DNA from: Phytophthora colocasiae | Lineage: Eukaryota; Oomycota; Peronosporomycetes; Peronosporales; Peronosporaceae | Assembly (NCBI GenBank): GCA_018806915.1 | Contig: JAGKQI010000064.1 | Coordinates: 682,001-746,000 of the forward strand | DNA length: 64,000 nucleotides | Direction of reading: 5' to 3' | Shown: in pieces, positions 9,549-37,925 of the stretch | How the letters are laid out: each line of letters starts with the position of its first letter | Numbering within the stretch: position 1 is the first letter of the stretch | Made by a program: the position numbers and the translations under genes | The notes under the pieces: generated by a model | The model's database searches: none | Seen by the model: the letters and a program-made list of their open reading frames with translations, nothing else | What the model was told of the DNA's origin: nothing

Positions 9549-10851
9549 ACGCGGGGCGGTCTACTGGGGAGGAACTGAGTTCTGCAGTGCGTGAGAGGCA
9601 CTGGGGCTCAGCCCCGAAGAGCTCCGTGCTCTTGAACACGGAACGTGTGAGCAAGCAGGGCTTGCTGGTCGTCCATGTGGACGTGAAGGGCTTCGAGAAG
9701 CCGTGGATCGTGTTGATCGATTCGGGAGCGTCTGGCAACTATGTCAGACGCTCCACCGTTGAGGGTAGTCAGCAATATGCTGAGGCGCTTCGAGCGCGAA
9801 GAGGTGACACCGTCACTGTCCGTCTAGCGACGGGCGTCCGTGTCACGGTGGCCAAGGTCCCCATGGATAGCTGCTGAACCTGCTGAAGACTCTGCACTGG
9901 CGGGACTTGATCAATATCCGTCAAGAATGAATTGATCTGCTGTCGTCTTAGGTTCTCTGTCTGGAGGCTCTCCGGCTGAAGTTCTTGGACTTCGATAGCG
10001 TGGAACGCTGCTTGGTCCTGGACCTGGATTCGAGGTACGACCTCATCCTTGGTATGGCATGGCTGGAGCGCCACGAACCATGGATCGACTGGAGGTCGAA
10101 GACCTTAGGTGCTACGCACTTCTCTCCTAGTGGAGCTTTGGCGAGTCATGAACCCACCTCTGCTAGGAAGCAGAAGCGCTATTGGCGCGAGCATCGAGCC
10201 GAGTCGGCTATGATGCTGGAAGTCGGTGTGTCCGAGTTGGTGGACAGCGCCGAGTGCGAGGACCGCAGTCCTGTTGAGCGCGTAGCGCTGGTTGACAGTG
10301 AGTCAACGTGTGGGCAAAGCTCACGTAACCCCTGTGGGGCGGCACGTACTCCGCCGAGTGACGCCGGTCATGGACCGTCACTGGATGCCAATGGCATCGG
10401 GCCTTACCAGGCCGTGAACTGTGGGGCGGCACGTACTCCGTCGAGTGATACTGGTCGTGGACCAAGTCGATCGCTGAGTGTCTCTGACACTGGACCTGTT
10501 ACGGTCATTGATTGTGCAGCGGCACGTACTCCGCTGAGCGGCATCGGTCGTCGACCGAGTGGATCGCAGAGTGTCACTGACACTGGGCCTGAAGGGGCCG
10601 AAACCTGTGCAGCGGCACGTACTCCGTCTAGTGACGTCGGCGGTAGACCGAGTCAGTCACTGAGTGTCACTGACACTGGGCCAGGCAAGGCCATAACCTG
10701 TGCGGCGGCACGTACTCCGTCGAGTGGACGTTCGTCGGCTAGGCGACGACGTCGTAAGGCCCTATGGGCGAGACGCTCTGCGTCTGAGTCGTCCGTGACG
10801 TTAAGTGTCAACGCACGGGAGGGCTGTGGGCAGCTATACACTTCTGGTTGA
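9549..10851 (+). pseudogene. Gypsy-A protease and repeat-rich spacer
   Basis: The aspartic protease active site LIDSGASGNYV lies at about 9715-9750 and the second conserved block LILGMAWLERHEPWIDW at about 10040-10090. Between them about 110 bp (roughly 9867-9978) of foreign sequence with stops interrupts the frame. The segment from 10330 to 10735 is a spacer of five tandem units of 93 bp (first interval 87 bp) encoding AARTPSSD and SVTDTGP motifs. The frame then overlaps the start of the RT frame at 10805. Confidence 0.8.
10339..10760 (+). repeat. 93-bp tandem repeats in the protease-RT spacer
   Basis: The word gcggcacgtactccg starts at 10339, 10426, 10519, 10612 and 10705, giving intervals of 87, 93, 93 and 93 bp. 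Each unit encodes about 31 residues with AARTPSSD and a SVTDTGP motif. The repeat stays in frame. Gypsy-B has an analogous but unrelated repetitive spacer. Confidence 0.9.
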
Positions 10852-12283
10852 TGGAGTGGACGGCAGTGCCGAAGGCAGCGTCCTGCTGGACGGACTGCCG
10901 AGTGTTGACAAGCTCCTTGAGCTAGAAGAGATGTCGTTCGCCGACTTTGGCGATGCCTTGAAGGCTGGCGAACTCGCCGAGGTGGTCATCGTTCGACCTG
11001 AAGAGGAGTTAAACTCATCGTCCCTCGTTGACGAGTCCGTCTTGGCCGAGGTCAAGAAGGCGCTGAGCGCCAGGAGTGGATCGGAGATCCTCAAGAATCC
11101 CTCGGATCCCTTCTACTCCTTGCTGAAGGAATACGGAGACGTTGTCTCAAAGGAACCACCGAGTGGCCTGCCTCCTGACCGAGGCGTTCGTCACGAGATC
11201 GACTTAGTTCCCGGAACTAAATACTGCGTGACCCGGCAGTGGCCTCTTCCTAAAGAGCAATGCGACGTCATTGACGCCTTCTTCCGTGCTAAGCACGCGG
11301 CGGGTCTCGTGCGCGAGAGCAAGTCTCCGCACTCCGCGCCAACGTTCTGTGTCAGAAAGCCGAATGGCAAGTGGCGTATCGTTCACGCTTTTAACAAGCT
11401 CAACGCTGCCACGATTCCGGCGCAGACGCCGATTCCTAGGAAGGATGTTCTTCAGAACAACATGGTGGGTTGCACCATGTACAGTGCGCTCGACTTAGTC
11501 GATGGCTACTATCAGCTGCTCATGCGAGCCAGTGATATTCCGCTTACAGCGGTGAGCACCCCGAGCGGTATGCTCTGGGAGTGGCTCGTCATGCCCCAAG
11601 GGCTGTCGAATGCGCCTGCAACGTTCAATCGTCTAGTGACGCAGTTGTTCAGGCCCCTACGGGCATTCGCACAGACGTACTTTGACGATGTGTTCGTCCA
11701 CAGTTGTGCTGAGCACGGGAAGACTGATGTCGAGGTACACGTGGAACACGTGAGAGCAGTGCTCGAGTGCATGCGCACCAACAAGTTGTACGCCAACGCG
11801 GACAAGTGCGTTTTTGGCGCGGAAGAAACCCCTTTCCTAGGGTGCTTCATTGGGAAGCATGGCCTTCGTGCTGATCCAGCAAAGGTCAAGGCCATTGTGG
11901 ACTGGCCGGTTCCGTTGAACCAGAAGGACTTGCGTAAATGGCTTGGCTTGGCCAACTACTTGCACAAGTACAGCGAAAACTACGCTGAGTTGGCTCGGCC
12001 ACTGTCGGATCTCCTTAAGAAGGATGCCGAATGGGTATGGCGTGCTGAGCACGAGAGTGCGTTCACTCGTATCAAGGATAGCCTGCTTCAGGCACCGATA
12101 CTGGCGTTGCCAGACCCCGATCGTCCGTTCATCGTCGTCTGTGACGCCTCGGACTTTGCCATCGGCAGGCTTTGCTACAAGCGGACGCCGACGGGTGCGA
12201 ACGCGTCATTGCGTTTGAGTCTCGGCAGCTCAAGGCTGCTGAGAAGAACTATCCAGTTCATGACAAGGAGCTACTTGCGATGA
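10805..12283 (+). pseudogene. Gypsy-A reverse transcriptase (N-terminal pol)
   Basis: The frame carries the Ty3/gypsy RT: HEIDLVPGTKYCVTRQWPLP at about 11190-11250, KPNGKWRIVHAFNKLN, ALDLVDGYYQLLM, the MPQGLSNAPATFNRL block and the catalytic YFDDVFVHS at about 11680-11705, followed by the connection domain. RNase H begins with VVCDASDFAIG at about 12135-12165; there a one-base deletion near 12170 shifts the remainder into the frame beginning 12172. The same region is in frame in Gypsy-B, which shows the lesion. A near-identical copy lies at 15790-16978. Confidence 0.9.
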
Positions 12284-14457
12284 AGTACGCTCTCGTCAAA
12301 TTCAGGGTTCACCTGCTCGGCTCCAAGCCGTTTGTGATCTACACGGATCATGCGTCACTACGCACAGCGACGCAGTCGCCTCACCTCTCGCAGAGGATGG
12401 CCCGATGGCTCTCCTTCTTTGCGGAGTATAACTTCGAGGTGAAGTATAAGCCTGGCAGGCAGAACGTCCTCGCTGACGCGTTATCACGTCGCCCGGACTA
12501 TGAGCTATCTCATGTCACCTCGGTGACGTCGTCCGTGACGGACATGGTTCGAGCAGCGTACGCTCAGGACGACTCTTGTGTCGCGCTGCTTCAAGCTCTA
12601 GGGAGCTATGAGTTTAAGGACTCAAATGTGACTCTGTCACGACGCCTAAAGGCGAGACTCCAACGCTATAGCCTGGAAGGCGGTCTGCTGTACTACAGCA
12701 CGGGTCAGGATGACCCACCACGTGTGGTGGTTCCTCACGATGAGGACCTGAAGTATCGTATCCTCTATGAGGCCCACGACACGCCCACAAGCGGCCACCT
12801 CGGTCGCGAGAAGACCTACGGCTCGGTGAGCTCCATGTACTGGTGGCCGAAGATGTACAAGTGGGTCAGCACATATGTGCACACGTGCGAGACGTGTCAG
12901 CGGGTTAAACCCTCGCCGCATGCGGCAGCGCCTTTGGCGAGCTTGCCTGTACCCTCTGGGTGTTGGCAGTCCATGAGTATGGACTTCGTGTTTGGCCTGC
13001 CGAAGGATACGGCAGGCAACACGGGCGTTGTGGTCTTTGTTGACCGTCTGAGCAAGATGGCTCACCTAGCGGCTGTGCCGGACACCGTCGATGGCGCTGG
13101 TACAGCGACGATCTTTATCGATCGGGTCTTCCGCCAGCATGGGCTGCCAGAGACCATTGTCTCGGATCGAGACCCCCGTTTCACGGGTCACTTCTGGACG
13201 TCCGTCTTCAAAGTGCTTGGCACTCGACTGGACATGTCCACGGCGGATCATCCGCAGACCGACGGTCAGACTGAACGCGTGAACCGCGTCCTGGAGGACA
13301 TCCTCCGCAGCGTATGCGCTGAAACGCCGAAGCGTTGGAGCGCTATGCTCCCTCTCGTTGAGTTCTCAATGAACAACGCGGTGCATGCCTCGACAGGCTT
13401 CACCCCGTTCTACGTGAACGGCCTTGCGCATCCGCGCGTCCCGCTCACTCCGCCACGCGGTAGCCTTGGGCTTGGTGGGGGAGAGGCTGTGCCGTCGCTC
13501 GACTCCGAGCTTGCTGATGTCAGCCCCCTTGCTGTTCGCAAGCAAGTCGATGACTTCCTCTCGATGAGGCTTAGCGTCTTACGCCGTGTGCGTGACGCAA
13601 TGGCTGAAAGCCAAGATGTTCAAAAGGAACAAGCTGATGCCAAAGGCAGAAGCAACATGTGGGAGTTCAAGGTCGGTGACCACGTTTTATTAAACGCTAA
13701 GAACCTGCCTACACACGCAGTGTCAGCCGTCTTCAAGACGAAGTTGCGGCCGCGCTTCATTGGACCGTTCACGGTCGTGGCCAAGAAGGGCCTGGCATAC
13801 ACGCTTGACTTGCCAAAGCGTATGCGAACACATCCTGTGTTCTACGTGGGCTTGCTTAAGCCATATCGGGACCCTGCTCTTGTGAGTTCTGAGGAGCTGG
13901 CGCCGAGTCGGACGAAGGCTGCACGGCAGCAGGTGGCAGAACCACAGGTGGTTGCATCCGAACCAACAGGTCTTGTCAATCCGGAGCAACGTGATGCTCG
14001 AGGTCATAGACCCGCTGATGCAGCACCAGAGGCGACTCAGACCGGTCCCCGCGACTCTAGGTCTCCTCGAGACCAGTTGCTAAGCGATGGGTCGGATGAC
14101 CGACGTGGTGGTCGTGCTCCTTCACCGAGCCGACGCGGGTCTGCAAGCAATGCAGCGCGTCTACACTCGCAGCGCGAGAACCCATCGACCGCTCGTCCTC
14201 CTCCTGCTCTGCTCGATGAGCAAGGTGAGCTTCACTATCACGTGGATCGCCTGATGGCGCGGCGTCGTCGCCAAGGACACAACCAGTATCTGGTGAAGTG
14301 GCGAGGTTACCCTCACTCACAGAACTCGTGGGAGTTTGAGGTGCCACTACGGCAGGATTGCCCGGACGTCGTTGACGCGTATGATCGGGCACACCCGGTG
14401 TCAGACCGCCCGGTGGGCGTGCGACGGAGTCGCCGGGTGCCAAGCACCTCCCACTAA
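12172..14457 (+). pseudogene. Gypsy-A RNase H, integrase and chromodomain
   Basis: This continues pol after the frameshift near 12170. The rest of RNase H (HDKELLAMKYALVKFRVHLL, then YTDHASLRTA) is followed by the integrase zinc-binding domain with HDTPTSGHLGREKTYG and CETCQRVKP (about 12775-12915). The DDE core follows (MDFVFGLP at 12980, then VSDRDPRFTG, TADHPQTDGQTERVNRVLED), then an SH3-like C-terminal domain and, after a low-complexity linker, a chromodomain (VKWRGYPHSQNSWEFE, about 14290-14400). Integrase inserts the cDNA; the chromodomain is thought to direct it to particular chromatin. The 761-codon frame itself is uninterrupted. Confidence 0.9.
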
Positions 14458-15368
14458 GGTGGGAGTCCACAGGGTCGTTGCTGAGCTCAGGCTCTGACCC
14501 GTAGCTGCAATACTTGCAGCGAGCACGTCGGTGCCGTCGACGTGGCATCGAATGCTCAAACTGCAAGCGCAGTAGAGCTACATGCGCCTCGCGCGCGTGT
14601 TTCAAGGGTCTTTGACCCTTTAACAACACTGGCCTATGGCCCGGAGCTTCGCGATCATGAAGCGAAGATGGTTCGTGATGAACAACCGTCTTAATGACGT
14701 TCTGTCTAAACGGCAAGTGGTGATGGAAACGGATTCTATCCGATCACCTGACGCTAGAAGCGTTCAATGGGTATGACTATGTCATGAGGCACTGTGGATG
14801 CCAGGGATGCCAATGCATTGGACCCCGCATGCTGCATAGCAGTAGGAGGTAGGTAAGCTCCTCCTGAGCGACAGCTTAGCTGTCTGGTGCTCGTTGTCGC
14901 GTCTACGACTGTGCTGAGCACGTGTATTCACAAGACACAGTGTCTGTGACACATAGTGGCGCTTGCGCTTGCTTCAAGGACAACTTCGGCATCAAGCCCT
15001 GCACACAGTGCTCATCCGAGGGTCACATTAACTGTGAAGCGAGTGGGCCCCACTGCTATGTGGTTCGTGGAACCGTTGGTAGCTTGGAAGGCTTGCCCTG
15101 TGGATCGCTGATCCAGTAGTATCATAGATACGCCACCTGTGGCCTTCTTTCCATTCCCGTAGAGCCCCTTGACTCGAGCCAGTAGGCTCCTATGCTTGGT
15201 AAGCATTGGGCCCAAGTGTGTACCAAGTGGCATCGCGTACGGAGGCGTGTAACACGCACGAGAGACAGCGCCGTCCGCGCAAGGCAAGGTACCGTGGCCA
15301 TCGGCCGATAATCGCGTCGTGTGTTTACACTTTCCGGATACGGTATCCGGAATCTTGGTGGGGGAGAG
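14458..15368 (+). other. Gypsy-A 3' untranslated region, hairpin rich
   Basis: No homologous gene is visible between the pol stop and the 3' LTR. The stretch is dense in short inverted repeats, for example an 8-bp arm pair ccggatac/gtatccgg with a 1-nt loop near 15335-15352, and arms around 14500-14520 (gctgcaa/ttgcagc). In Gypsy-B the equivalent interval holds an antisense ORF; I find no counterpart here. It ends in the purine tract ggtgggggagag (15357-15368), the likely plus-strand primer. Confidence 0.6.
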
Positions 15369-15789
15369 TGTAACGGGGATGTTACACAAATGTTTCTCGT
15401 TGGTGTGTGACACACGGGCATACATTTATGTGGGTACACAATGGTGTGTGACACTCATGATACATTTATGTGGGTACATAATGGTGTGGCACACACGAGT
15501 AGATACGTAGATGGCCTCAGAGCCTCACGTTGCATTTTGATTAGGATTTAGTATGTTAGATACTAAATCCGTTACATTTGGGATTAGGGCAATAAAGTCA
15601 ATATAATTCAGCTTGCATTTTACATAGTTAGTGTTAGTCCTTTGTTATAGGGACACTGACTCTGTGAGTCCCGTATTTAGTGGACTACTTGGTTCTTGTA
15701 TAGAACCGAAGGCTAGTGCCTTGCAAGCAGGACTCTACGAGTCAACTAAACTTCCTCTGTGCCGTGCACACCTACGCAGCCCCGCTGCA
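15369..15789 (+). repeat. Gypsy-A 3' LTR, also 5' LTR of the fused fragment
   Basis: It begins TGTAACGGGG and ends CCGCTGCA. Its first 145 bp differ completely from the 5' LTR and include two tandem copies of a segment around catttatgtgggtaca (about 15423 and 15464). From about 15513 it matches the 5' LTR. It is joined without a gap to RT-region sequence at 15790. Confidence 0.85.
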
Positions 15790-16978
15790 GTCCTGCTGTA
15801 CGAACTGCCGAGTGTTGACAAGCTCCTTGAGCTAGAGGAGATGTCGTTCGCCGACTTTGGCGATGCCTTGAAGGCTGGCGAACTCGCCGAGGTGGTCATC
15901 GTTCGACCTGAAGAGGAGTTAAACTCATCGTCCCTCGTTGACGAGTCCGTCTTGGCCGAGGTCAAGAAGGCGCTGAGCGCCAGGAGTGGATCGGAGATCC
16001 TCAAGAATCCCTCGGATCCCTTCTACTCCTTGCTGAAGGAATACGGAGACGTTGTCTCGAAGGAACCACCGAGTGGCCTGCCTCCTGACCGAGGCGTTCG
16101 TCACGAGATCGACTTAGTTCCCGGAACTAAATACTGCGTGACCCGGCAGTGGCCTCTTCCTAAAGAGCAATGCGACGTCATTGACGCCTTCTTCCGTGCT
16201 AAGCACGCGGCGGGTCTCGTGCGCGAGAGCAAGTCTCCGCACTCCGCGCCAACGTTCTGTGTCAGAAAGCCGAATGGCAAGTGGCGTATCGTTCACGCTT
16301 CTAACAGGCTCAACGCTGCCATGATTCCGGCGCAGACGCCGATTCCTAGGAAGGATGTTCTTCAGAACAACATGGTGGGCTGCACCATATACAGTGCGCT
16401 CGACTTAGTCGATGGCTACTATCAGCTGCTCATGCGAGCCAGTGATATTCCGCTTACAGCGGTGAGCACACCGAGCGGTATGCTCTGGGAGTGGCTCGTC
16501 ATGCCCCAAGGGCTGTCGAATGCGCCTGCAACGTTCAATCGTCTAGTGACGCAGTTGTTCAGGCCCCTACGGGCATTCGCACAGACGTACTTTGACGACG
16601 TGTTCGTCCACAGTAAGGCCGAACACGGCAAGACTGACGTCGAGGTGCACGTGGAACACGTGAGAGCTGTGCTCGAGTGCATGCGCACGAACAAGTTGTA
16701 CGCCAACGCGGACAAGTGCGTTTTTGGCGCGGAAGAAATCCCTTTCCTAGGGTGCTTCATTGGGAGGCATGGCCTTCGTGCTGATCCAGCAAAGGTCAAG
16801 GCCATTGTGGACTGGCCGGTTCCGTTGAACCAGAAGGACTTGCGTAAGTGGCTTGGCTTGGCCAACTACTTGCACAAGTACAGCGAAAACTACGCTGAGT
16901 TGGCTCGGCCACTGTCGGATCTCCTTAAGAAGGATACCGATTGGGTATGGCGTGCTGAGCACGAGAGTGCGTTCACTC
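15790..16978 (+). pseudogene. LTR-fused RT fragment of a second Gypsy-A copy
   Basis: Immediately after the LTR the sequence matches 10881-12068 of Gypsy-A at very high identity, including the YFDDVFVHS RT motif, but with independent substitutions (for example HSKAEHG here and HSCAEHG there). The leader, gag, protease and spacer are therefore deleted, and the LTR runs in frame into RT (frame open from 15631). The copy ends at 16978 where pogo-like sequence begins. It is a deletion derivative, not an independent gene. Confidence 0.9.
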
Positions 16979-17685
16979 CGAAGCCCGCGCAACAACAGCA
17001 GAGCCGCTCCAGGAGAAACACAAGCCTGTCGGGCGCCCACGTCTCCGTGAAGATGGCGGTAGAACGGAAAGCACGGGAACGAGAGAGGCGTTCACGAACG
17101 CGATTAAGCTACGTGCAGCTAAGCGTTATCGCAGTACTGACGACGCCAGGCAGACAATCAAGGAATTCTGGCCTATTCTACACCCAGCGGAATACAGCAA
17201 CCGTCGCAAGCTTTTAAGTAAATGGAAGAAGAAGGTGACTAAGCTAGAGCAGGCCTGTGCAACTACCAAGGGCATGCTGCGAAAGAGAGAGCGTTTGGTA
17301 GGAACAGGAGTAAAGATGCTGAAGGCGAGATCGTCGACTGGATCAACGACCTGAGGCAAGAAGGCGTACCAGTTTCGGCGCTCATGCTTAGCCTAAAAGC
17401 CACTGAAGTTGCTACAAGCTACAACGTCCAAGCTCACAAAGACCGAGACTGCAATACGAATGAGCTGCCGAGCTTGCTGGCTTGCACGTTCTGGACGAAC
17501 AGATCGGCGAAATCGACTCCGATACCGATACCGTATTGGCAACGACGAGTGAATCTTTGTGTAGGCATTCTGCTAATCGATACCACGGTTTTGACTGCTC
17601 ATCTCCGAAGATCAACTTTTTGGAGACCTGCTCATCACCCGAAGATAGGGTGCGCCTTAGACAAAGGGAAGTCGGTACAACACTT
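16979..17685 (+). pseudogene. pogo/CENP-B-like transposase N-terminal relic
   Basis: One plus frame (about 17080-17345) gives KLRAAKRYRSTDDARQTIKE and a lysine-rich helical stretch. A shift then leads to a frame with EIVDWINDLRQEGVPVSALM (about 17320-17380), which is the HTH CENPB-type DNA-binding pattern of pogo-like (Tc1/mariner superfamily) transposases. The DDE catalytic domain is missing. The fragment is bounded by the truncated Gypsy-A copy and by the segmental duplication starting 17686. Confidence 0.65.
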
Positions 17686-21816: not shown

Positions 21817-21817
21817 C

Positions 21818-22453: not shown

Positions 22454-22486
22454 GAAGAATGCTTAGCGGAGGCAGTTTCGTATAAG

Positions 22487-24448: not shown

Positions 24449-24560
24449 GTGCATCATTTCATATTTCTTTTGAATAAAATCTCTTACTTTCATGTCATAT
24501 TTTCAACTTCACTGGTCTTTATTAACCTTACCCAAACTACTGGGACCAATCATGCCCCCG

Positions 24561-24590
24561 CGCCCGCGTAGCGGGCGCCCAGAGCGCTAG
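24561..24590 (+). terminator. Helitron H1 3' hairpin and CTAG end
   Basis: A 7-bp perfect stem cgcccgc/gcgggcg with loop gta is followed by a 9-base spacer and CTAG, then host T. This is the standard Helitron 3' terminus (hairpin plus CTRR), which acts as the rolling-circle termination signal. H2 has the same stem at 39724-39740. Confidence 0.9.
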
Positions 24591-24593
24591 TTA

Positions 24594-27763: not shown

Positions 27764-29547
27764 CCCAACAATATTGCGTTGATCAGTGGGCAAAAGCAGA
27801 ACAAGAACGCCTTCGGTACATCGAGAACAATCAACTCGAATTTCGACTCGAATCGATACAAGGTCTTACAGATGCGTATAGATACGAGAGTACAGAAGCT
27901 CAACGAGGCGCCGATATAGATGAACTACTACAGGAGGCTGCTAATCCAACAGTCAATCGGCGACGTCAAAACGAGTCTGGTGATGCTGCGGAGGTAGACG
28001 CGGGCGATGTTGGCAGGCGATTAATTCTACCGCCTTCGTTTACAGGTGGACCTCGCTACATGTATCAAAGGTTTCAAGATGCCATGGCCATCGTTCGCGA
28101 ATTAGGGGCTCCCAACCTGTTCATTACGATGACATGTAACCCAAAATGGGTGGAGATCAAGGAGAACATTCGGCCGGGACAGACAGCATCAGACAGACCT
28201 GACATCGTGGCTCGGGTTTTTATGCGGAAATTGAAAAGTCTTTGTAAGGATCTCGATGAGGGCATTTTGGGAATTCAGACTGCTCGGATTCACGTCGTCG
28301 AATACCAAAAGCGCGGACTGCCTCATGCACACATTTTGATGATTTTACGACCCGAGGATAAGCCCGTTACGGCAGAAGACATCGACCGTTTGGTTTCAGC
28401 GGAGTTACCTGACCCAAATGAAAATCCTGACCTTTACGAGACTGTGTTGTCGTGTATGATGCATGGTCCATGTGGAGATCAGAACAAAACGTGTCCGTGT
28501 ATGAAGAATGGGAAATGCTCTAAAAAGTTCCCTAAGCCTTTCGCGGAAGCAACGACAATGGCAGTGGATAAATATCCAGTATACAGACGACGTCGACGAG
28601 AAGCTGGGAATTTGCAGCGTGGGGACAAAGTGTGGGATAATGCCACGATCAACCAATGGATTGTCCCGTACAATCCGTATCTTTCGCAAAAGTACAACTG
28701 TCACATCAATGTGGAGGTTTGTGCGACGAACAGGGCAATCAAGTACATCTACAAGTACGTGTACAAAGGAGCAGATATGACCACCATTACGATCGAAGGT
28801 CAGGTTGAGGAGCACTCCCTTAACGAAATCCTGCAGTATTTACTGGCTAGATATGTATCCCCTGTCGAAGCGTGTATGCGCCTTTTCAGACATCCTACCC
28901 AAGGATCAACGCACAACGTGGTTAAACTGGCTGTCCATTTGCCTGGGCAGAGCTCAGCAGTGTACCGGGCAAGCGCAACAAACGATCAGATTCGCCGGAT
29001 GATTCGTCGGGGTGACAGGACGACACTGACCGCGTTTTTCTTGCTGTGTATTATGGAGCCAAACGTAGCTGGGACAATGTTGTACAAAGATATTCCCACG
29101 GTATACCGGTTGAACAAGAGGAATAAAGAATGGGTCCAGTACAGAAAGTATGTACCTTCCATTGGGCGAATTGTTTACGTCTCACCACAAGACCCGGAAC
29201 GGTTCTACTTGCGACTTTTACTTGGTAACATACGTGGACCAACGTCGTATGAAGACTTAAGGACTATTGACGGGGTTACGTACGGTACCTTCCACGAAGC
29301 CGCTCTGGCAGCTGGATATTTAGACAATGATCGGGAATGGGAGGAGTGTCTGACTGAGGCGGCGCATGAGCGCATGCCGTACCAGCTCCGACAGCTTTTC
29401 GCTATCATTTTGGTGTACTCTCTTCCGAGTAGCCCACTAAGTTTGTGGGAACGATTCAAGGACAAGCTTAGTGAAGATTTTCAACGAGCGCTTGATGCCG
29501 AGATGGACGACCCACGGGTGGAGTATAGATGTAATGGGTCTACCTAG
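27709..29547 (+). pseudogene. H2 Helitron Rep core with HUH motif
   Basis: This is the Helitron_like_N and Rep domain: LLLGGRLTQQYCVDQWAKAEQ near the start, GGPRYMYQRFQDAMAIVREL, the two-histidine nuclease motif EYQKRGLPHAHILMIL at about 28300-28345, a cysteine cluster (MHGPCG...CPCMKNGKCSKKFP), and NEILQYLLARYVSPVEACM with the nicking Tyr region. The frame runs to 29547, but its last codons lie in the LTR of Gypsy-B, which inserted after 29529. Across the insertion the reading frame continues exactly at 37926. Rep nicks and joins the transposon ends during rolling-circle replication. Confidence 0.9.
29525..29529 (+). repeat. Target-site duplication ATAGA (left)
   Basis: ATAGA precedes the Gypsy-B LTR here and follows the other LTR at 37921-37925. 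A perfect 5-bp duplication is standard for Ty3/gypsy integration and fixes both element ends. Confidence 0.95.
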
Positions 29548-29971
29548 ACCTATTAGGTGGCGTACACGTGCGCTTACGTGTATGAGGAAGCGTGCAATTA
29601 GAATAGACTTAATTTAAGTATACTTATTTAAATAAGTATAATTAAATCAAATATAACTAAATTAAACTGCAAAATACCGTAAAATGAGAACTGTTATTGA
29701 ATTTGCCATAAGCCAATTATGGACCTCCTAAAACTGTTTGTTATCTATTTCTAAAGGGTCTGCCAACGTGCTCAGTGATTGGTAGAAATCCGTTACTTTC
29801 TACCAATAATATGCACAGATGCACACGAACCATCCAATAATGTGGTTCGCCCATGTATCCTTTGGTGTGTACAGCACACCAAGGTCTGAGGCCCATTTCC
29901 AGCCTCTAACAGTTATTCTAACTGTTAGAGTTACAAGTGGTACAACCACTTGTACGTGTAACCCCGTTACA
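29530..29971 (-). repeat. Gypsy-B 3' LTR (442 bp)
   Basis: In plus orientation it starts TGTAATGGG and ends CCCCGTTACA. It lacks 18 bp (present at about 37703-37720 in the other LTR) and with them one arm of the ctgccaac/gttggcag hairpin. Purine tract on the element strand: the complement of ccatcccccccgtt at 29972-29985. Confidence 0.95.
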
Positions 29972-30073
29972 CCATCCCCCCCGTTAAGATTCGACGTATC
30001 GGTCTCGATACGTCAATCAACAGAACTTGACAAGACCGTCAAGTTCCCAAGAGAAATCCGAGTTCATTTCGCA

Positions 30074-31621
30074 ATGGACTCGCCAACGCCCACGTCTCCG
30101 TCCACTACTGCGGACGCGCAAGCCTCACCTGCTGCCTCTGCAGCAGGAACAACGACCTCAGCAGTGCTCACTAGCACTGCTGCTTCCAGCGGTCCGACAG
30201 AGAAGATCTCTGTCACCAAGTACCATGCTTTCCATAAGGAGAAGCATGAGAAGAAGAAGAAGTCTTCTTCTCTAGCAGAGATTAAGAATCCTGCTGTCCC
30301 TCTCAAAGAACTCTTTGGAGAGGACTACGAAGACATCCTCGACTACGAGGAGGATGCCGAGGAGGGGGAGGTTGATGTCAAGGCTCCCGCTCCCGTGTCT
30401 TCGTCTGAAGACACGTCAGACCCACCCGTGGGATCTCGACGACCTCGTGATGAGGCCTCGGACGCTTCAAGCTCGAAGCGTCCGCGCAGTGATGATGAAG
30501 CGTCCCCCATGTCGAGGGCGCTCACTGCACCGCGCACTGATCCGCCAGTGCGCACGCCATGGATGCCTACTGAGGCGGAGATCCATGACCGGTTCGGTGC
30601 TAGTTCACCACCGAACCCGATACTGTTGTACTCATGCAACAGTATCAACGACGACGACGTCGCCGCTAAGGTTGTCTTTGAGTCCGAGACTCAAAGACGC
30701 GACTAAAATATCGGGCTCTTCCATGAGCTCCGATACTATGCAGCGAAGAAGACTTCGCGCAAGAGCAAAGTGCCCGAGTGGCAGGCACTTTGTCAGTCGT
30801 GGAACGCCTTTGTTGAAAACTTCAACAAAGACCCGAAGGCATATCGCGATCGCGTTGCTGCGGCTCGCGATCGCTACTACACTTACACTACACGTGGTAA
30901 GTGTGAACGCCTCCATGATCAGTCCATGGAAGCGGGGATCCCATGTGCCGTTCCCTTTGGCACACCCTGTCCGTGTTGCCCACCCTTGGCAACACGCCTT
31001 ACCGAAAGTGATCTCCTGGGGTACACGGTCGTCCGTGTACCCGATCACATCAAGGAGCTCCGTGGTCGTATTGTGCCACGCGAAGCTCCGAGTGCTGTGG
31101 CTGACCGCAGCACTCCTCGTGCAGGGTTTAACCCTGCAAGTTATGGTGGGCTTCGTACGCCCTCACCATTTCCGGAACGTCCTCCATCAGGACGTTCCGC
31201 GGCTCCCATGTATCTCGATGGGGAGGAAATCCTCTCCAACGAATACGAAAACGAACCCCTTGAGAGTTCGTTCTCTTATGAGCCACAATCCGCTCAACAA
31301 TCCAGCGGATCGCTCCACGCGCGTCGCGCAACGGCGGCGGAGGGGGTGGGAACACTCCCTCCGCATGGTCAACGCTATGACGATGACGATCGTGCCCTGC
31401 ACGATCGAGTTGCTGCGCTGGAGCAGACACAGAGCGCTGAGATAGCTGCTCTGAAGCAGGAGGTTCGTGTCCTCCGTGCTGAGGTCTGCGAGGCAGCTCA
31501 GACTGCCTCGAACCTCTCGTCCGGTCTTGGGACGAGAGTGAACCGGTTGAACGACCGTGTCGACGGTCTCGAGAAGGCCTTCCAGGCCTCTCGCACTCCT
31601 CAGTCGGACTACCAGCCCTAG
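30074..31621 (+). CDS. Antisense ORF in Gypsy-B, one internal stop
   Basis: A plus-strand frame of 515 sense codons runs from ATG 30074 to TAG 31621, interrupted only by TAA at 30704-30706 (codon 211); the frame is identical on both sides. The product starts with a Ser/Thr/Ala/Pro-rich segment, has a basic patch (HEKHEKKKKSS, about residues 52-62), an acidic stretch (about 80-103), a central region with aromatic residues and CPCCPP, and ends in a strong heptad coiled coil (about residues 437-506). It begins about 100 bp from the 3' LTR and its last 494 bp overlap the integrase-chromodomain ORF on the opposite strand. I recognise no family. Alternatives are a captured gene fragment or an antisense regulatory protein of the element. 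The internal stop means this copy is truncated or needs readthrough. Confidence 0.55.
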
Positions 31622-32663
31622 GTAGTCCGTGCTGCACGTACGGCTTCAACCGCCCGACGTAGAAGGTCGGGTGTAGCCTCATGCTGGACGGTATGTCCAG
31701 CCGGTACGCGTTACCATGCCGTTCAAGTACTTTGAACGGCCCAATGAATCTTGGAGCAAGCTTGCTTGCTCCAAAGTCAGACACTGCATGTCTAGGTAGG
31801 TTTTGTGTAGCTAACAAAACTAATGAACCCTTTTCGAATTCATTTGTGTTGCCTCTACCAACAGTATCAGCGTTCAGCTTCTGTCGATCGACAGAAGCTG
31901 CGATAGCATCTTGGACAAACCGTATGACGGCTTGTCTTCGCTGGACAAAGTCTAGCGCACCCGAGCTGAATCCTTTCAGCTTGTCGCCCTTGTCAGCAGC
32001 AGGCCCTGCCTGCTCGCTATCATCTCTCATGTCTGTGCCCGGCACAGACATCGCGCGCTCGTTCCTGCTCGAACGAGACGTCGCACGCGTCACCGCAGCT
32101 GATAGTGTGCAGCTATCAGTTGCATTATGCGGTTGTTCGGACGCAACCGTAGATCCTCCCCCACTTAAGGAGGAAGCTACCCCGCCGAGCATGCTCGGCA
32201 ATCGTGGATGCCTCATGGCGTTCACGAAGAACGGTGTATGCCCTGTCGAGGCATGCACCGAGTTGTTGATGGCAAACTCTGCCATCGGCAAGCACTCGCT
32301 CCAATGCGGGAACGAGTGAGCGTAGCTCTTCAACGTGTCACCCAATACACGGTTGACACGTTCGGTCTGTCCGTCCGTCTGCGGATGATCCGCAGTCGAC
32401 ATTGATAACTGTGAACCAAGAAGTGTAAACACTTCTTGCCAGAACCGCGCTGTGAAGCGTGGATCACGGTCCGACACAATGTCGAGCGGCATGCCATGGT
32501 GTTTGAACACCATGTCAACAAACAGTCGCGCAGTCTGCGCGGCTGTAACAGTAGCCGGGACGGCAGCAAGATGAACCATCTTGCTGAATCGGTCCACAAA
32601 GACAACGATGCCCGTCCTCCGCTTGCTGTCAGGCGGAAGACCGAAGACAAAGTCCATGGACAT
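31128..32663 (-). pseudogene. Gypsy-B integrase core and chromodomain
   Basis: The minus-strand frame opens at MDFVFGLPPDSKRRTG and contains VSDRDPRFTARFWQ and TADHPQTDGQTERVNRVL (the integrase DDE core), an SH3-like domain (KLAPRFIGPFKVL, then LHPTFYVGRLKPY). After a long Arg/Ser/Pro-rich linker comes a chromodomain (FRIRWRGFPPHRDTWEP, about 31150-31230). This 511-codon frame is uninterrupted, but the zinc-binding HHCC domain upstream (about 32670-33090) is in other frames, so the full integrase is broken. The C-terminal linker and chromodomain overlap the antisense ORF. Confidence 0.9.
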
Positions 32664-33096
32664 GGACTGCCAAACACTCCGACGGAGTCGGTAGTGATTG
32701 AAGAGGAGCCTGCGAGAACTGCGCAGGCTTCACGCGTTGACAAACCTCGCAAGCACGTACGTACTTGCGCACCCACTTGTACTGGTGGTGCCAGTAGAAG
32801 TCACGCGTGAGAAGAGTGTATGTCTTCTCACGACCCGGATGCCCTGCCGTGGGGCATCGTGATACACGACCAAGATCCTCAACCGGAGGTCATGATCATT
32901 CGGAACGACAATGCGATCCGCATTGTCGTCTACTGCACTGTACAACAGTAGGCCTTCGTGTACACGATAGCGGTGTACACGAGCTCGAAGATGAGGGGTT
33001 AGCTTCCGACGTGCCACGTCGGAAGGTGCCTGCGAGGAACTCCAGCAGCCCCTTCGCGTCTGCATCCCTTGCATACGCAGTTCTTCACGTCGTCAA
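32664..33096 (-). pseudogene. Gypsy-B integrase zinc-binding region, frameshifted
   Basis: The minus strand holds YRVHEGLLLYSAVDDNADRI, VVPNDHDLRLRILVVYHDAP and, in a shifted frame, the rest of the H2C2 zinc-binding domain leading into MDFVFGLP. At least one indel near 32850-32880 breaks it. Confidence 0.75.
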
Positions 33097-34567
33097 TCAA
33101 CGTTGACGACGGCACACTGTCCTCACGACGCCAACAGCGTTGGCGTCGACCGTCTCCGCATAGTCAGGTCGACGCGATAACGCGTCGGCCACTACATTGA
33201 GTCTTCCGGGTTTGTACTCCACCCGGAAGTTGTACTCCGCGAAGAAGGACAACCATCTCGCCATACGTTGCGAGATGTGCGGCGACTTAATCGCCGTACG
33301 CAATGATGCGTGGTCCGTATAGACCACGAACGGTCTACTCCCAAGTAGATACACTCGGAACTTTGCGAGTGCATACTTCATGGCAAGGAGCTCCTTGTCA
33401 TGTACGGGATAGTTACGCTCAGCTGGCTTCAGCTGACGCGATTGATAGTAGACTACACGATCACGCCCTTCGTGATCGTGTTGCATCAATGCACATCCGA
33501 TTGCAAAGTCGGATGCATCGCACACTACGTGGAATGGACGATCTTGGTCCGCCACGGCCAAGATCGGCGCTTCAGTCAAGCCCTGCTTGACTGCACCGAA
33601 TGCCTCCTCGCACTCGGTCGTCCAAATCCACTCAGCTTCTTTCTTAAGAAGCTGTGACAACGGGCGAATCTTGCCCGCATAGTTCTCCACGTACTTGCAC
33701 AAGTACGTGGCAAGCCCAAGGAACTGCCTCAGTTCCTTCACATTGGATGGCGTGGGCCATTCATTGATCACTCTGACCTTCTCTGGGTCAGGGCGCACGC
33801 CGTCTTTCCCCACGAGACACCCCAGCACGGGTATCTCGCTCGCCCCGAAGATACACTTCTTCAGGTTCCGCATAGAGCTTATGTTTCCTCATAAGCTCTA
33901 GCAGCTTCCGGAGATGCACCTTGTGCATCTCAATGTCCGTCTTCCCGTTCACAGCCCGGCTGTGGACGAACACGTCGTCGAAGTAGCTCGGTGCGAAGTC
34001 GCGCACCGAGCGTAATAGATGTGTCACGCATCTATTGAACGTCGCAGGGGCGTTCTTAAGCCCCTGTGGCATGACGAGCCACTCCCAAAGCATACCGCTT
34101 GGAGTGCTTACCGCAGTGAGAGGGATGTCCCTCTCACGCATGAGGATCTGATAGAATCCATCACGCAGATCTAGAGCACTGAAGATAGTGCTCAAGGCCA
34201 TCGAATCGATGATAACATCTTTTCGCGGTATCGGCGTCTGCGCCGGTATCGTCGCATCGTTCAGCTTGTTATACGCATGAACGATGCGCCAGCCGCCCTG
34301 TGGTTTCTTAACACAGAACGTTGGAGCACTGTGCGGGGACTTTGATTCCCGCACTTGACCTGCAAGACGACGACTTTCAAAGAAGTCGTCGATCGCTTGC
34401 ACTTGTTCACGCGGCAGTGGCCACTGCCGTGTAACACAGTACTTCGTGCCCGGCACGAGATCAATCTCGTGCTGTACGCCCTTATCCTTCGGAAGCTCCG
34501 AAGGAATCTCGTCCGGGAGTACATCCTTGTACTCCCGCAGAAGCTCGTAATAGGGACTCGACTTCAA
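33097..34567 (-). pseudogene. Gypsy-B reverse transcriptase-RNase H, one frameshift
   Basis: From 34567 downward the minus strand encodes HEIDLVPGTKYCVTRQWPLP, GGWRIVHAYNKLND, ALDLRDGFYQILM, MPQGLKNAPATFNRC and the catalytic YFDDVFVHS (about 33960-33990). A frameshift near 33860 divides it from the connection and RNase H part, VVCDASDFAIGCALMQ, HDKELLAMKYALAKFRVYLL and YTDHASLRTA (33097-33873). RT copies the RNA; RNase H removes the template. It is strongly similar to Gypsy-A in protein but diverged at the DNA level. Confidence 0.9.
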
Positions 34568-35822
34568 CGAGTCCCACCTCTGCTCCTCGAAGCGTTGCTT
34601 CTTGGTCTTCGCACTGGGGGGTCATCGCCCTCAGTGATGCCATCGACGACGAGCTGCTTCAGCTCCTCGGCTTCGCGATCCAATCTCTCGATATCCGAGA
34701 GAATGCAAATTTGTTCGATGCGTCCATCGTACAAGTCCCGCGCGAAGCGCTTCCAACTCATCGTTGGAAGTGCGGTCAACGCCGACGCACACGTCGGCGG
34801 ATTCTCCAACCGCATCCTCAGGTACTGTAACCCAGTACCAGTACGTGTCAAGACGTTCAACGTCTCGACACTCGGTGTCTGCCCTGCAGATACACCCTTC
34901 TCAGTCACGGACTGAGACTCACACAGCTCACTGAGCTGGTGCCGCGCGCTCTGATACTGTACCGCAGTATCAGTTCGTGTCAAGACGTCCAACGCCTTGA
35001 CACTCGGTGTCTGCACCGCAGACACACCCTCCACAGTCATGGACTGGGACTCGCAAAGCTCCCTGAGCTTGCGCCGCGAAGGTCTGCCATGGAGCTCAGC
35101 TCCAGGCGCTCCACGTCCAAGGCATCGCACCTTGGACGGGACGTTATCGCAATCGTCAGCGGATTCCTTCCGCTGACTCGCACTATCAAGCCCGGCTTGA
35201 GTGCCGCTCATCGCGTGCAGCGCTGCTGCACGTGAGCACGCAGGTTGTTCGGGTGCTGGGCGTTTGCAACCGCCAGCACCTCCTGCCGCGCAGTCGGTTC
35301 CCTGAACCGCTGCGCCTCCATCCGCTCCCGGAGCGGATGAAGCAACCGCATCGTCGACCCCCCGGAGTCGACGTGCTCTCGCTAGCTTCCTGCGCTAGCG
35401 AGTGTTCGCTTGTACACATATCATCCGTTCCCAGAGCGGATGTACGATCGCTAGTTCCCGGAACTAGCAGCGACTGTTCGCCTATACACGTCTCATCAGC
35501 TCCCGGAGCTGATGACCGATCGCTAGTTCCCGGAACTAGCAGCGAAGCGCCAGTGGCGTCAGCTCCCAGAGCTGACGCACGTCTTTCGGTTCCCCGAATT
35601 TTATTTTCTTCGTCAACTCCCAGAGTTGACGCGACGTCGTCGGCGCGACCCTTGGGGGCTTGAAGTACCTCCAAGGATACCGGTAATACCGGTATAATAC
35701 CTTCTCTCAGGTGAATGCGATTCACCTGACCATCACTCATGTGACAAACATCATTCAGATGTTTACGCGTCAGGTGATTCACATTCACCTGACCATCACT
35801 CATGTGACCGCGACCCTTCGGC
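34564..35822 (-). pseudogene. Gypsy-B protease-RT spacer, repeat rich
   Basis: Between protease and RT the minus strand has open segments (35211-34564 and 35938-35186 in different frames) encoding low-complexity repeated modules: SLLVPGTSDR...ALGTD in one, and LCESQSVT...GVSAGQTPSVETLNVLTRT in the other. The DNA consists of imperfect tandem units with embedded palindromes, such as gctagttccc-ggaactagc near 35450 and 35523. The function is unknown; Gypsy-A has a spacer of different sequence but similar style at the same place. Confidence 0.7.
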
Positions 35823-36467
35823 TCAGATTTCTGAGTCGACACACATTTTCTCACAACGACTCCCGGAGTCGTTGATGGTCGCCGGGCGGCGATCGGAGGC
35901 AGCGGCGGCCGGTGCATGTGCAGCACTGACAGGGCCATCGCTCTCTGTCGCGCATGTGTTGTTGAAGCGTACGAGTGTACGCTTCTCCCAGTTGATCACC
36001 GGGTCATGCCGTGCAAGCCACGGCATGCCTAATACCAAGTCGAACTTATCGTCTAGATCCAAGACGATAAGATCTTCTACAAACGTCCTTCGTTTGTAAG
36101 AGAAGCGCACACGGACTACGCGCTTCTCAGTCCTCACGGTGGCACCCGTTGCCAACCGCACCTCCAACACGCTGCGAGGCGTGTCGGCCTCTTCGAAGTC
36201 AAGTCTTCGAAGACTTCCCTGTCGAACAAAGTTGTTCGACGCGCCCGAGTCCACTAGGGCACGAAGAGAGTTTACTCTCTTCGACATCACGTTCAGGATG
36301 ACAAGGTTTGGCTTGTCATCTTGCAGCTTACAGCGAGAAACCTTCTCGCTGGGGGCAGCAGTCCTCATCGTCGCGTGTCCAAGCTCGACACGCGAGACTG
36401 CATCACCAGTAGGACGCCCCGCGCCTACTGGTCCTTGGCGTTTTTTGAACGCCCGCCCGCTGTGCAC
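35823..36467 (-). CDS. Gypsy-B aspartic protease
   Basis: The minus-strand frame overlaps the end of gag by 43 bp and lies in the -1 frame relative to it, the usual gag-pro arrangement that uses ribosomal frameshifting. The active site LVDSGASNNFV is at about 36235-36270, and LVLGMPWLARHDPVINWEKR is at about 35970-36030. It would process the Gag-Pol polyprotein in virus-like particles. The frame is intact to the stop at 35823. Confidence 0.85.
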   Translation of the reverse strand: MHSGRAFKKRQGPVGAGRPTGDAVSRVELGHATMRTAAPSEKVSRCKLQDDKPNLVILNVMSKRVNSLRALVDSGASNNFVRQGSLRRLDFEEADTPRSVLEVRLATGATVRTEKRVVRVRFSYKRRTFVEDLIVLDLDDKFDLVLGMPWLARHDPVINWEKRTLVRFNNTCATESDGPVSAAHAPAAAASDRRPATINDSGSRCEKMCVDSEI

Positions 36468-37246
36468 TCGCGTGCATAGTGACCGATGTTACTACACTTG
36501 TAACATCGAACCTTGCTGTTCCTACGCTGCTGTTGACCAGCAGTCGTAGCACTCGAGAGGTCCATAGGTTCCGGACCTCCCGTCTTCACAACAGGACGCG
36601 CCGGCTTCGGCGCGTTCGCATGGAGTTTAGCTTGACGTCGGCTAAACTCCTCTTGCATCGCAAGGCTGATCGCCTCTTCGAGAGTATTCGGATACTCTCG
36701 GAAGAGATATGTTTTGACGGGACCATCTCTTAGTCCCTTCATGAACGTGACGACCTTAGTCGCCTCGTCGATCGGGTTCGCCACTATGTTCGATACCAAG
36801 TATCGAGCACGCTGGGCAAAGGTGTGGACATCATCCTTGCCCTGCTGCAGATCGAGAAACTCCGCTCTCGATCTGAACTCGTTCTTCGGAGGCTCAAACG
36901 CAAGTTTGAGTTCCTCCTTGAACACCTCATACGTGCTGAAGCACGTAGGATCCGAGAGTCGGCGCCCATAGGCCCAACTCCTCGCACGTCCGCCAAGACA
37001 TGACATGGCGAACGCGACCTTCGACATCGGATCGACGATACGTCGAGCCGCAACGGCTGTGTCAAGTTCGACAAGCCAACGAAGGAGGGTCTCGTCCTCC
37101 TTCCCCGTGTAGGTACTCACGTGGAGTTTCAACGACTCCACGCGTGGCTTAGGGGAAGCCACCGAGGCAGCAACATCTCGTTGCTCCTTAACAATGTACC
37201 CCAGAGCAACACCGTGTTGCTCTGTCGGCGATAGCGTACGAAGCAT
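36425..37246 (-). CDS. Gypsy-B Gag
   Basis: This is a 273-residue Gag on the minus strand with ATG at 37246. A retrotransposon gag (capsid) domain lies at about residues 40-200 (YTGKEDETLLRWLVELDTAV, then FEPPKNEFRSRAEFLDLQQG), then GPEPMDLSSA and one CCHC zinc knuckle CYKCSNIGHYAREC near the C-terminus (about 36470-36510). It forms the particle shell and binds RNA. It is intact, unlike pol. The zinc-knuckle codons form a perfect 9-bp hairpin at 36484-36508. Confidence 0.9.
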   Translation of the reverse strand: MLRTLSPTEQHGVALGYIVKEQRDVAASVASPKPRVESLKLHVSTYTGKEDETLLRWLVELDTAVAARRIVDPMSKVAFAMSCLGGRARSWAYGRRLSDPTCFSTYEVFKEELKLAFEPPKNEFRSRAEFLDLQQGKDDVHTFAQRARYLVSNIVANPIDEATKVVTFMKGLRDGPVKTYLFREYPNTLEEAISLAMQEEFSRRQAKLHANAPKPARPVVKTGGPEPMDLSSATTAGQQQRRNSKVRCYKCSNIGHYARECTAGGRSKNAKDQ

Positions 37247-37441
37247 CGTCGCTACCGCTGCCTCTCCAATGACTTGTGAAAGTCTTTGGAGAGCTTCTCA
37301 CTCTGGATCTGACAGGTGGGCACAGTCCGTGCGCGTCACGGACATGTGAGGGGTCCCAGTGGATCCCTCATCCATTGGGGAGTTCTCTACCCCGCGTTCG
37401 TATGACTCCATACGAACGAACAGCAGTCGGTCGTGGGACGG

Positions 37442-37458
37442 ACTACAAAGTGCTACCA
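37442..37458 (-). promoter_or_regulatory. Gypsy-B primer-binding site
   Basis: On the minus strand, two bases after the LTR, the sequence reads TGGTAGCACTTTGTAGT. It agrees with Gypsy-A (8521-8537) apart from one extra T, so both use the same or a related tRNA primer. Confidence 0.75.
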
Positions 37459-37460
37459 GG

Positions 37461-37920
37461 TGTAATGAGTCTACCTAGACCTATTAGGTGGCGTACACGT
37501 GCGCTTACGTGTATGAGGAAGCGTGCAATTAGAATAGACTTAATTTAAGTATACTTATTTAAATAAGTATAATTAAATCAAATATAACTAAATTAAACTG
37601 CAAAATACCGTAAAATGAGAACTGTTATTGAATTTGCCATAAGCCAATTATGGACCTCCTAAAACTGTTTGTTATCTATTTCTAAAGGGTCTGCCAACGT
37701 GTGGTTGGCAGAAACTCTGCTCAGTGATTGGTAGAAATCCGTTACTTTCTACCAATAATATGCACAGATGCACACGAACCATCCAATAATGTGGTTCGCC
37801 CATGTATCCTTTGGTGTGTACAGCACACCAAGGTCTGAGGCCCATTTCCAGCCTCTAACAGTTATTCTAACTGTTAGAGTTACAAGTGGTACAACCACTT
37901 GTACGTGTAACCCCGTTACA
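37461..37920 (-). repeat. Gypsy-B 5' LTR (460 bp)
   Basis: In plus orientation it runs TGTAATGAG to CCCCGTTACA. Its right end is three consecutive perfect hairpins: 12-bp stem/3-nt loop (37853-37879), 10/3 (37881-37903) and the tip TGTAAC-CCC-GTTACA (37906-37920). Further stems are 37691-37711 (8 bp) and 37727-37756 (11 bp). As the promoter-bearing LTR its transcript start would lie within this structure. Confidence 0.95.
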
Positions 37921-37925
37921 ATAGA
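37921..37925 (+). repeat. Target-site duplication ATAGA (right)
   Basis: Right copy of the 5-bp duplication created by the insertion of Gypsy-B. It restores the Helitron reading frame directly after it. Confidence 0.95.

What the first reader, a model, noticed from the sequence alone, without database searches (positions are those of the whole stretch)
29530..37920. A retrotransposon saturated with back-to-back short perfect hairpins
Seen: within 30394-30904 alone there are perfect inverted repeats at 30394-30415 (9-bp stem, 4-nt loop), 30460-30483 (9/6), 30532-30553 (8/6), 30591-30617 (9/9), 30620-30645 (9/8), 30674-30698 (11/3), 30743-30758 (6/4), 30767-30791 (8/9), 30808-30830 (10/3), 30846-30874 (9/11) and 30879-30904 (8/10). 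The same density continues by eye through integrase, RT, protease, gag and both LTRs (for example 36484-36508, 9/7; 37727-37756, 11/8; 37853-37879, 12/3). With equal base frequencies a 9-bp stem with loops of 3-11 is expected about 3-4 times per 100 kb; here seven occur in about 510 bp. Neighbouring host genes and Helitrons do not show this. Possible causes: repeated quasi-palindrome correction by template switching during reverse transcription, selection for a compact structured genomic RNA, or evasion of or feeding into RNA silencing. I know of no description of an element like this.
Basis: partly seen in the sequence, partly recalled or inferred. Interest (0 to 1): 0.88.

Follow-up and report, generated by a model that had tools for sequence, protein, structure and literature searches.

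The report
Retrotransposons tiled with perfect DNA hairpins
A group of related jumping elements in a water-mould (Phytophthora-like) genome is covered from end to end with short, perfectly paired hairpins whose length differs between families, a pattern that looks more like DNA folding or copying than like ordinary RNA structure.

Summary
Confirmed, and larger than reported. All 14 quoted hairpins are exact. Of the window's 145 perfect stems of 8 bp or more, 115 lie in the 29-38 kb bins; shuffled windows average 11 in all. Seven of 7 element ORFs hold 8-13 such stems each, against 0.23-0.62 after codon shuffling; 11 of 11 other ORFs hold 0 or 1.

The element is a chromodomain Ty3/Gypsy (29530-37920, minus strand) of a Phytophthora-like genome. 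Two related families share the saturation: A, also in this window (8.6-17.3 kb), and C. The hairpin excess is 16-25 per kb in all three, but stem length differs: A 5 bp, C 5-8, B up to 9-10. The other transposons and host DNA measured lack it.

G-U pairs bring no clear benefit, forbidding them raises the signal, and both strands fold about equally. Individual hairpins are hardly conserved between families. This argues against selection on sense-RNA structure. Best reading, unproven: the hairpins arise in single-stranded cDNA, most simply by fold-back template switching of the reverse transcriptase; diffuse selection for folded cDNA is nearly as likely.

The parts
29530..37920 (-). Gypsy-B, the hairpin-saturated chromodomain Ty3/Gypsy element
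   Evidence: hairpin counts, domains, ends
37461..37920 (-). 5' LTR; 13.0 stems of 8 bp or more per kb (counted over 37458-37920)
29530..29971 (-). 3' LTR; 11.2 stems of 8 bp or more per kb (counted over 29527-29971)
37921..37925 (.). target-site duplication TCTAT, one side
   Evidence: read by eye
29525..29529 (.). target-site duplication TCTAT, other side
   Evidence: read by eye
29972..29982 (-). G-rich polypurine tract before the 3' LTR (label recalled)
   Evidence: read by eye
36425..37246 (-). gag ORF with zinc knuckle
   Evidence: Pfam PF03732, PF19259, PF00098; 8 stems, codon-shuffle mean 0.38
35823..36467 (-). aspartic protease ORF
   Evidence: Pfam PF08284; 13 stems, codon-shuffle mean 0.42
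34780..35620 (-). hairpin-cassette stretch with tandem repeats of 132 and 72 bp; cassettes differ between copies
33788..34567 (-). reverse transcriptase ORF
   Evidence: Pfam PF00078; 9 stems, codon-shuffle mean 0.40
33097..33873 (-). RNase H ORF
   Evidence: Pfam PF17917, PF17919; 9 stems, codon-shuffle mean 0.28
31128..32663 (-). integrase core, SH3_Tf2-1 and chromodomain ORF
   Evidence: Pfam PF00665, PF24626, PF00385; 13 stems, codon-shuffle mean 0.53
29972..31127 (-). 3' part between the integrase ORF and the 3' LTR, no Pfam family above cut-off on the plus-strand ORFs that overlap it; 17.3 stems per kb
8600..17300 (+). Gypsy-A region (one element plus part of a second copy), related family saturated with 5-bp hairpins
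   Evidence: domains, relation, hairpins

Best explanation
A clade of high-copy chromodomain Ty3/Gypsy retrotransposons has its whole sequence tiled with short, separate, perfectly Watson-Crick-paired hairpins, about the same number per kb in each of three families but with a stem length typical of the family. SHOWN: the saturation in coding and non-coding parts, its limit to this clade in the sample, the lack of a clear benefit of G-U, near strand symmetry, dependence of stem length on G+C in A and B, turnover of individual hairpins between families. INFERRED: the hairpins form in single-stranded DNA during reverse transcription; the nascent cDNA folds back and the reverse transcriptase uses the first arm as template for the second before returning to its template, so near-palindromes become perfect and new mismatches are erased, while selection on the proteins removes harmful changes. 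A family-specific property of the enzyme, such as the fold-back stability it needs, would set the stem length.
For: G-U is not favoured: in B, stems with one mismatch hold 16 G-U, 32 A-C, 33 others; in A, perfect 5-bp stems are enriched 5.6 and 6.75 times but stems with one G-U only 1.17 and 1.26 (host 1.22). Forbidding G-U raises the sense-strand gain over shuffles from -21.5 to -26.8 (B), -20.2 to -25.3 (C), -7.8 to -11.7 (A) kcal/mol per 200 nt, and DNA parameters give the largest relative excess. Both strands fold about equally. Coding and non-coding parts are alike. Stem length falls with G+C. Pairing is conserved between families hardly more than base identity predicts. In B, variants shared by copies are rarer in stems (11 of 1111 columns) than in loops (16 of 327) or elsewhere (54 of 2231). 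Amino-acid agreement is 74% in stems, 78% outside. For long coding palindromes of nematomorph mitochondria, conversion by template switching was proposed from the lack of imperfect repeats (passages of PMC6649704).
Against: No excess of one-arm change (sum of differences 30, binomial 35.8; derived 32 left, 36 right) and no faster change in stems. Only a slight excess of new stem-making changes among copies: 20 against 13.0 expected of 304. Older pairs lie nearer the loop in B (inner three 59/128 and 60/113, outer 39/111 and 37/91) but not in A. Non-coding parts are not consistently denser. In B and C, stems with one mismatch are enriched too. Uniform hairpin energies in B and similar density in all families suit selection as well or better.
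Confidence: 0.42

Rival explanations
1. Diffuse selection on the folding of single-stranded cDNA, or of both sense and antisense strands: any hairpin of sufficient stability helps (protects single-stranded DNA, compacts it, or hinders sense-antisense pairing that would feed RNA silencing), so density and stability are kept while single hairpins come and go.
For: More uniform hairpin energies than chance in B (sd 3.14 against 3.87 +- 0.20); stem length against G+C rho -0.22 and -0.20 in A, -0.22 in B (149 stems); similar density in three families; stem-breaking single-copy changes below expectation, 56 against 79.8 of 304; DNA energies separate native from shuffled hairpins slightly better than RNA energies (interval excludes zero only in B).
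Against: A half-useful G-U should be tolerated better than other mismatches and is not clearly so. Family-specific stem length is not explained. No benefit was measured.
Confidence: 0.36
2. Selection for a structured genomic RNA (sense strand), as in RNA viruses with genome-wide structure, for packaging, stability or evasion of silencing.
For: Very high folding energy excess in B and C; in C, G-U outnumbers A-C in stems, 9 to 4 and 7 to 3, not significant.
Against: G-U not favoured in A and B; gain rises when G-U is forbidden; no sense-strand bias, antisense excess slightly larger; hairpins hardly conserved between families.
Confidence: 0.1
3. Mobile or tandemly multiplied palindromic cassettes spreading inside the element.
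For: At 34780-35620 hairpins with CTCCGGGAG- or TTCCGGGAA-like cores occur in tandem and differ between copies as whole units.
Against: Elsewhere most short loops occur once or twice, and the hairpins sit in conserved domains that align by codon.
Confidence: 0.05
4. Chance, base composition or codon usage.
For: None found.
Against: Mononucleotide, dinucleotide and codon shuffles.
Confidence: 0.01

Closest known systems
Coding palindromes in mitochondrial genes of Nematomorpha (PMC6649704; abstract and passages seen)
   Same: Perfect inverted repeats inside conserved protein-coding sequence; dynamic gain and loss; the authors propose active conversion, possibly by template switching.
   Different: There: long repeats, up to 284 bp, in mitochondrial DNA. 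Here: 5-10 bp stems about every 50-60 nt over a whole nuclear retrotransposon, with a family-specific length.
Genome-scale ordered RNA structure of RNA viruses (recalled; only a search listing seen)
   Same: Folding energy excess along the whole genome.
   Different: Here G-U pairs are not favoured, there is no sense-strand bias, and structures are simple separate hairpins.
Chronos, chromodomain Ty3/Gypsy of Peronosporales and Pythiales (PMC5348765; one section and passages seen)
   Same: Oomycete Ty3/Gypsy with a chromodomain behind integrase.
   Different: Chronos has a second, archaeal-type RNase H; the Gypsy-A ORF scanned here shows only the Gypsy RNase H at E <= 1e-5. 'hairpin' occurs 0 times in that paper.
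Yeast Ty3 genomic RNA structure (PMC11381356; abstract start and passages seen)
   Same: Ty3/Gypsy genomic RNA with local structure and a few palindromes.
   Different: In the passages seen, palindromes are discussed for dimerization at the 5' end, not as saturation of the genome.
Quasipalindrome template-switch mutation in E. coli (PMC7202029; search listing only)
   Same: A polymerase turning imperfect into perfect inverted repeats.
   Different: There an occasional mutation at hot spots in bacterial DNA; here, if true, it would shape an entire element through its reverse transcriptase.

Membership tests
Ty3/Gypsy LTR retrotransposon with chromodomain | gag, protease, RT, RNase H, integrase and chromodomain in that order | tested here: met
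   B; A
Ty3/Gypsy LTR retrotransposon with chromodomain | LTRs and target-site duplication | tested here: met
   (B, this copy)
Chronos | dual RNase H | tested here: inconclusive
   one RNase H in one 963-aa ORF of family A at E <= 1e-5; the wider check of A and B failed and was not repeated; B and C not tested
Genome-scale ordered RNA structure | genome-wide folding energy excess | tested here: met
Genome-scale ordered RNA structure | pairing selected in the sense RNA (G-U used, sense strand favoured); criterion is mine | tested here: not met
   in C G-U slightly outnumbers A-C, not significant
Coding palindromes of the nematomorph type | perfect inverted repeats within conserved coding sequence | tested here: met
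Coding palindromes of the nematomorph type | long repeats (tens to hundreds of bp) | tested here: not met
   stems at loop 3-15 end at 12 bp in B
Dispersed repetitive palindromic elements | copies share one sequence | tested here: not met
   loops diverse outside 34780-35620; shared cores seen only in that stretch
Template-switch (quasipalindrome) products | clustered changes that copy the opposite arm, seen in recent copies | tested here: inconclusive
   clusters listed for few copies, gains 20 against 13.0 expected; arms balanced

The most novel reading that the evidence does not exclude
A clade of retrotransposons carries a sequence-independent hairpin code at the DNA level: a nearly fixed number of fold-backs per kb, with a stem length characteristic of each family, written over the whole element, genes included, by its own reverse transcriptase. 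The enzyme would be a self-writing drive that reshapes its own genome, with stem length as a readable fingerprint of each enzyme.
Probability: 0.35. Interest if true: 0.95.

Novelty: categorically new. Interest (0 to 1): 0.88.

Why it matters
If the enzyme writes the hairpins, then mutation alone, biased by fold-back copying, can impose a strict structural pattern on a protein-coding genome, and this can be measured in vitro. If selection does it, some step in the life of these elements needs both strands folded, which points to an unknown pressure on single-stranded DNA or on sense-antisense pairing in oomycetes. In either case a folding-energy excess should not be read as RNA structure without a G-U test and a strand test. 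The carrier is an ordinary chromodomain Gypsy; the pattern is what I call new. Nine full-text searches of the library held here listed no title or abstract that describes it; several lists were capped, and the library lacks most subscription journals and all preprints.

Tried and rejected
Chance or composition: rejected by mono-, dinucleotide and codon shuffles. Known RNA families: 0 matches at gathering score. A general feature of this genome or its transposons: not in the sample. Of 19 fetched 10-kb stretches, 6 have hairpin-rich parts and each of the 6 holds an A, B or C element; two other RT-bearing Gypsy-like elements and the Helitron stretch are at chance, a Copia is at 2.6 per kb (domains). 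Double-strand palindromes: loops of 0-2 are not favoured over 3-5, and inner loop bases are complementary about as often as chance, except the outer bases of loop-4 hairpins in B, 15 of 31. One-arm overwriting: no excess. Relatives in viral contigs: one scan, none confirmed. The whole-genome tool offered neither relatives nor a file for this genome, so no other species was examined at DNA level.

Discarded or weakened: (4 of 10 fetched loci wrongly oriented; replaced). The family C part, with its list of paired changes, because L023 there ran beyond homology. The paired changes in the cassette stretch, because one search shows that at least one copy is aligned out of register with another cassette and one search finds only two such pairs. 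Copies of a family are close to identical, so A, B and C are three observations. In one search one of two C pieces (RNase H) lies within its codon shuffles for 5-6 bp stems (5, highest shuffle 7). The non-clade folding mean uses 12 of the 13 non-clade stretches; L025 was left out (its 1-kb means are -2 to 10%).
Full report
WHAT WAS CHECKED. All 14 quoted hairpins are exact. A count of perfect stems of 8 bp or more with loops of 3-15 gives 145 in the window, 115 of them in the nine 1-kb bins from 29001 to 38000; ten mononucleotide shuffles average 11 for the whole window. In the element, stems of 6 bp or more with loops up to 20 cover 40% of bases, 5% in shuffles. Of 149 stems of 7 bp or more with loops up to 12, 147 are un-nested and non-overlapping, with a median gap of 21 nt. 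Codon shuffles that keep protein and codon usage remove the signal in 7 of 7 element ORFs; 11 of 11 control ORFs hold 0 or 1 stem of 8 bp.

WHAT THE ELEMENT IS. Pfam finds gag, zinc knuckle, aspartic protease, RT, RNase H, integrase, SH3_Tf2-1 and chromodomain on the minus strand, over several overlapping ORFs. LTRs (95.7% alike), a 5-bp duplication TCTAT, a G-rich tract and a TGGTAGCA stretch next to the 5' LTR (polypurine tract and tRNA primer site, labels recalled) bound it at 29530-37920. The genome has 92.5 Mb in 105 contigs; an RT-RNase H probe gave 825 first-look candidates, of which the 40 scored are 99-100% alike. The best RT protein hit is 92% identical, from Phytophthora cinnamomi; a host protein (lipase maturation factor) is 89% identical to a JGI 'Phyca11' model, which I take to be P. 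capsici (species label recalled). The host is a Phytophthora or a close relative.

A CLADE, NOT ONE ELEMENT. Nineteen 10-kb stretches chosen without regard to content were fetched. Six have hairpin-rich parts and all six hold members of one Gypsy clade: B (L020), C (L023, L027) and A (L014, L017, L019). A is also in the window at 8.6-17.3 kb. RT amino-acid identity is 67% between B and either other family and 83-84% between A and C. In 1-kb means, both strands together, the folding energy excess over dinucleotide shuffles is 34-48% inside B, apart from bins at L020's edges and at 7-9 kb (21-23%); 27-40% in most of C; and 9-24% in A; 600 windows of 200 nt from twelve other stretches average 0.7%, single 1-kb bins elsewhere reaching 14%. 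A had seemed a negative control because its long stems are at chance; it is saturated with 5-bp stems: 28, 51, 32 and 31 stems of 5-6 bp in four ORF pieces against 5.9, 9.8, 5.3 and 6.8 after codon shuffling. Five control ORFs show nothing of the kind (3-7 against 3.1-6.4).

FAMILY-SPECIFIC STEM LENGTH AT SIMILAR DENSITY. The excess of perfect hairpins (stem 5 bp or more, loop 3-6) over dinucleotide shuffles is 17.9-25.2 per kb in seven A pieces, 17.0-17.5 in four C pieces, 16.2-17.9 in four B pieces; it is -0.3 and -0.1 in two other Gypsy-like elements, 2.6 in a Copia, -0.1 in the Helitron stretch, 0.8 in 24 kb of host DNA. A peaks at 5 bp and then falls about as chance extension would; C spreads over 5-8; B is flat from 5 to 10, with its highest enrichment at 9-10. 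Copies of a family are nearly identical, so these are three observations, not fifteen.

WATSON-CRICK, BOTH STRANDS. If the sense RNA were selected, G-U should be favoured over A-C. In B, stems with one mismatch hold 16 G-U, 32 A-C and 33 others; counting only states shared by two copies, 9, 13 and 14. In C G-U is ahead, 9 to 4 and 7 to 3, not significantly. In A, 5-bp stems with one G-U are enriched 1.17 and 1.26 times, as in host DNA (1.22), while perfect stems are enriched 5.6 and 6.75 times (host 1.35). Forbidding G-U raises the gain over shuffles in A, B and C, and DNA parameters give the largest relative excess (67-76% in B, 57-66% in C, 28-30% in A, 2-3% in host). The antisense strand shows a somewhat larger excess in all three families; with the same shuffles on both strands this holds in B and C, not in A. 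I read it as near symmetry, since composition could cause the difference. DNA energies separate native from shuffled hairpins slightly better than RNA energies; the interval excludes zero only for B.

PHYSICAL HAIRPINS. Stem length and G+C are anticorrelated in A (rho -0.22 and -0.20) and B (-0.22 for 149 stems; -0.17, p 0.09, for the 102 with loop 3-6), not significantly in C. Hairpin energies in B are more uniform than chance. Short loops are preferred, most strongly 3 in A. C-G closes the loop more often than G-C in A (103 to 43, 77 to 34) and C (35 to 14), not in B (33 to 30).

HISTORY. In codon alignments of RT, RNase H and integrase, columns paired in one family are Watson-Crick in another at 0.410, 0.454, 0.427, 0.491, 0.484 and 0.488, where independent base identity predicts 0.398, 0.447, 0.394, 0.485, 0.495 and 0.445. 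Six of 48 B hairpins have a C hairpin centred within 3 columns, four exactly; in RT this exceeds all circular shifts, in RNase H and integrase not significantly. Amino-acid agreement with positions where A and C agree is 91 of 123 in stems, 292 of 373 outside. Derived changes are 32 and 36 on the two arms and not clearly faster in stems. So hairpins largely turn over while density and length persist. Among eleven B copies, shared variants avoid stems (11 of 1111 columns; loops 16 of 327; rest 54 of 2231). Single-copy changes in A, B and C break stems 56 times (79.8 expected) and make stems 20 times (13.0 expected), of 304.

MECHANISM. A process that sees only Watson-Crick pairing on either strand, acts in coding and non-coding parts alike, depends on hairpin stability and does not preserve particular hairpins fits fold-back template switching on cDNA best, in my judgement. 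But direct signs of conversion are weak, and selection for folded single-stranded DNA or for both transcripts explains stability and density at least as well. I put 0.42 and 0.36 on the two. Small RNAs against LTR retrotransposons, in both orientations for two Gypsy types, are known in P. infestans (passages of PMC3522703), so a silencing link is open.

LITERATURE. Nine searches, most with capped lists, showed no title or abstract that describes hairpin saturation of a retrotransposon. Of PMC6649704 I saw the abstract and 12 passages, of PMC5348765 one section and passages, of PMC3522703 and PMC11381356 passages and the start of the abstract.

Noticed in passing
45455-51595, minus strand; repeat 48809-50798: A BRCA2 homologue (BRCA2 repeat, helical and OB1 domains) holds 10.5 copies of a 189-bp repeat, 98% matches: an apparently homogenised repeat array.
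   Followed up: partly
34780-35620: Hairpin cassettes with related cores repeated in tandem (periods 132 and 72 bp); whole units are present or absent between B copies.
   Followed up: partly
29819-31621, plus strand: Overlapping ORFs of 295, 376 and 283 aa antisense to the 3' part of Gypsy-B; no Pfam family above its cut-off.
   Followed up: partly
37906-37920 and 29957-29971: The outer 15 bases of each LTR start are themselves a perfect hairpin, TGTAAC-GGG-GTTACA (read by eye).
   Followed up: no
8600-17300: Two Gypsy-A RT regions, 97.5% alike in DNA, lie in the same orientation about 5 kb apart.
   Followed up: no
20700-29550: Helitron with PIF1 helicase and Helitron_like_N ORFs directly beside Gypsy-B.
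   Followed up: no
loci L002-L010, L020, L030-L041, L019: Single-copy changes on the sense strand are richer in G to A than C to T in C (19 to 9) and A (24 to 12), hardly in B (34 to 31).
   Followed up: no
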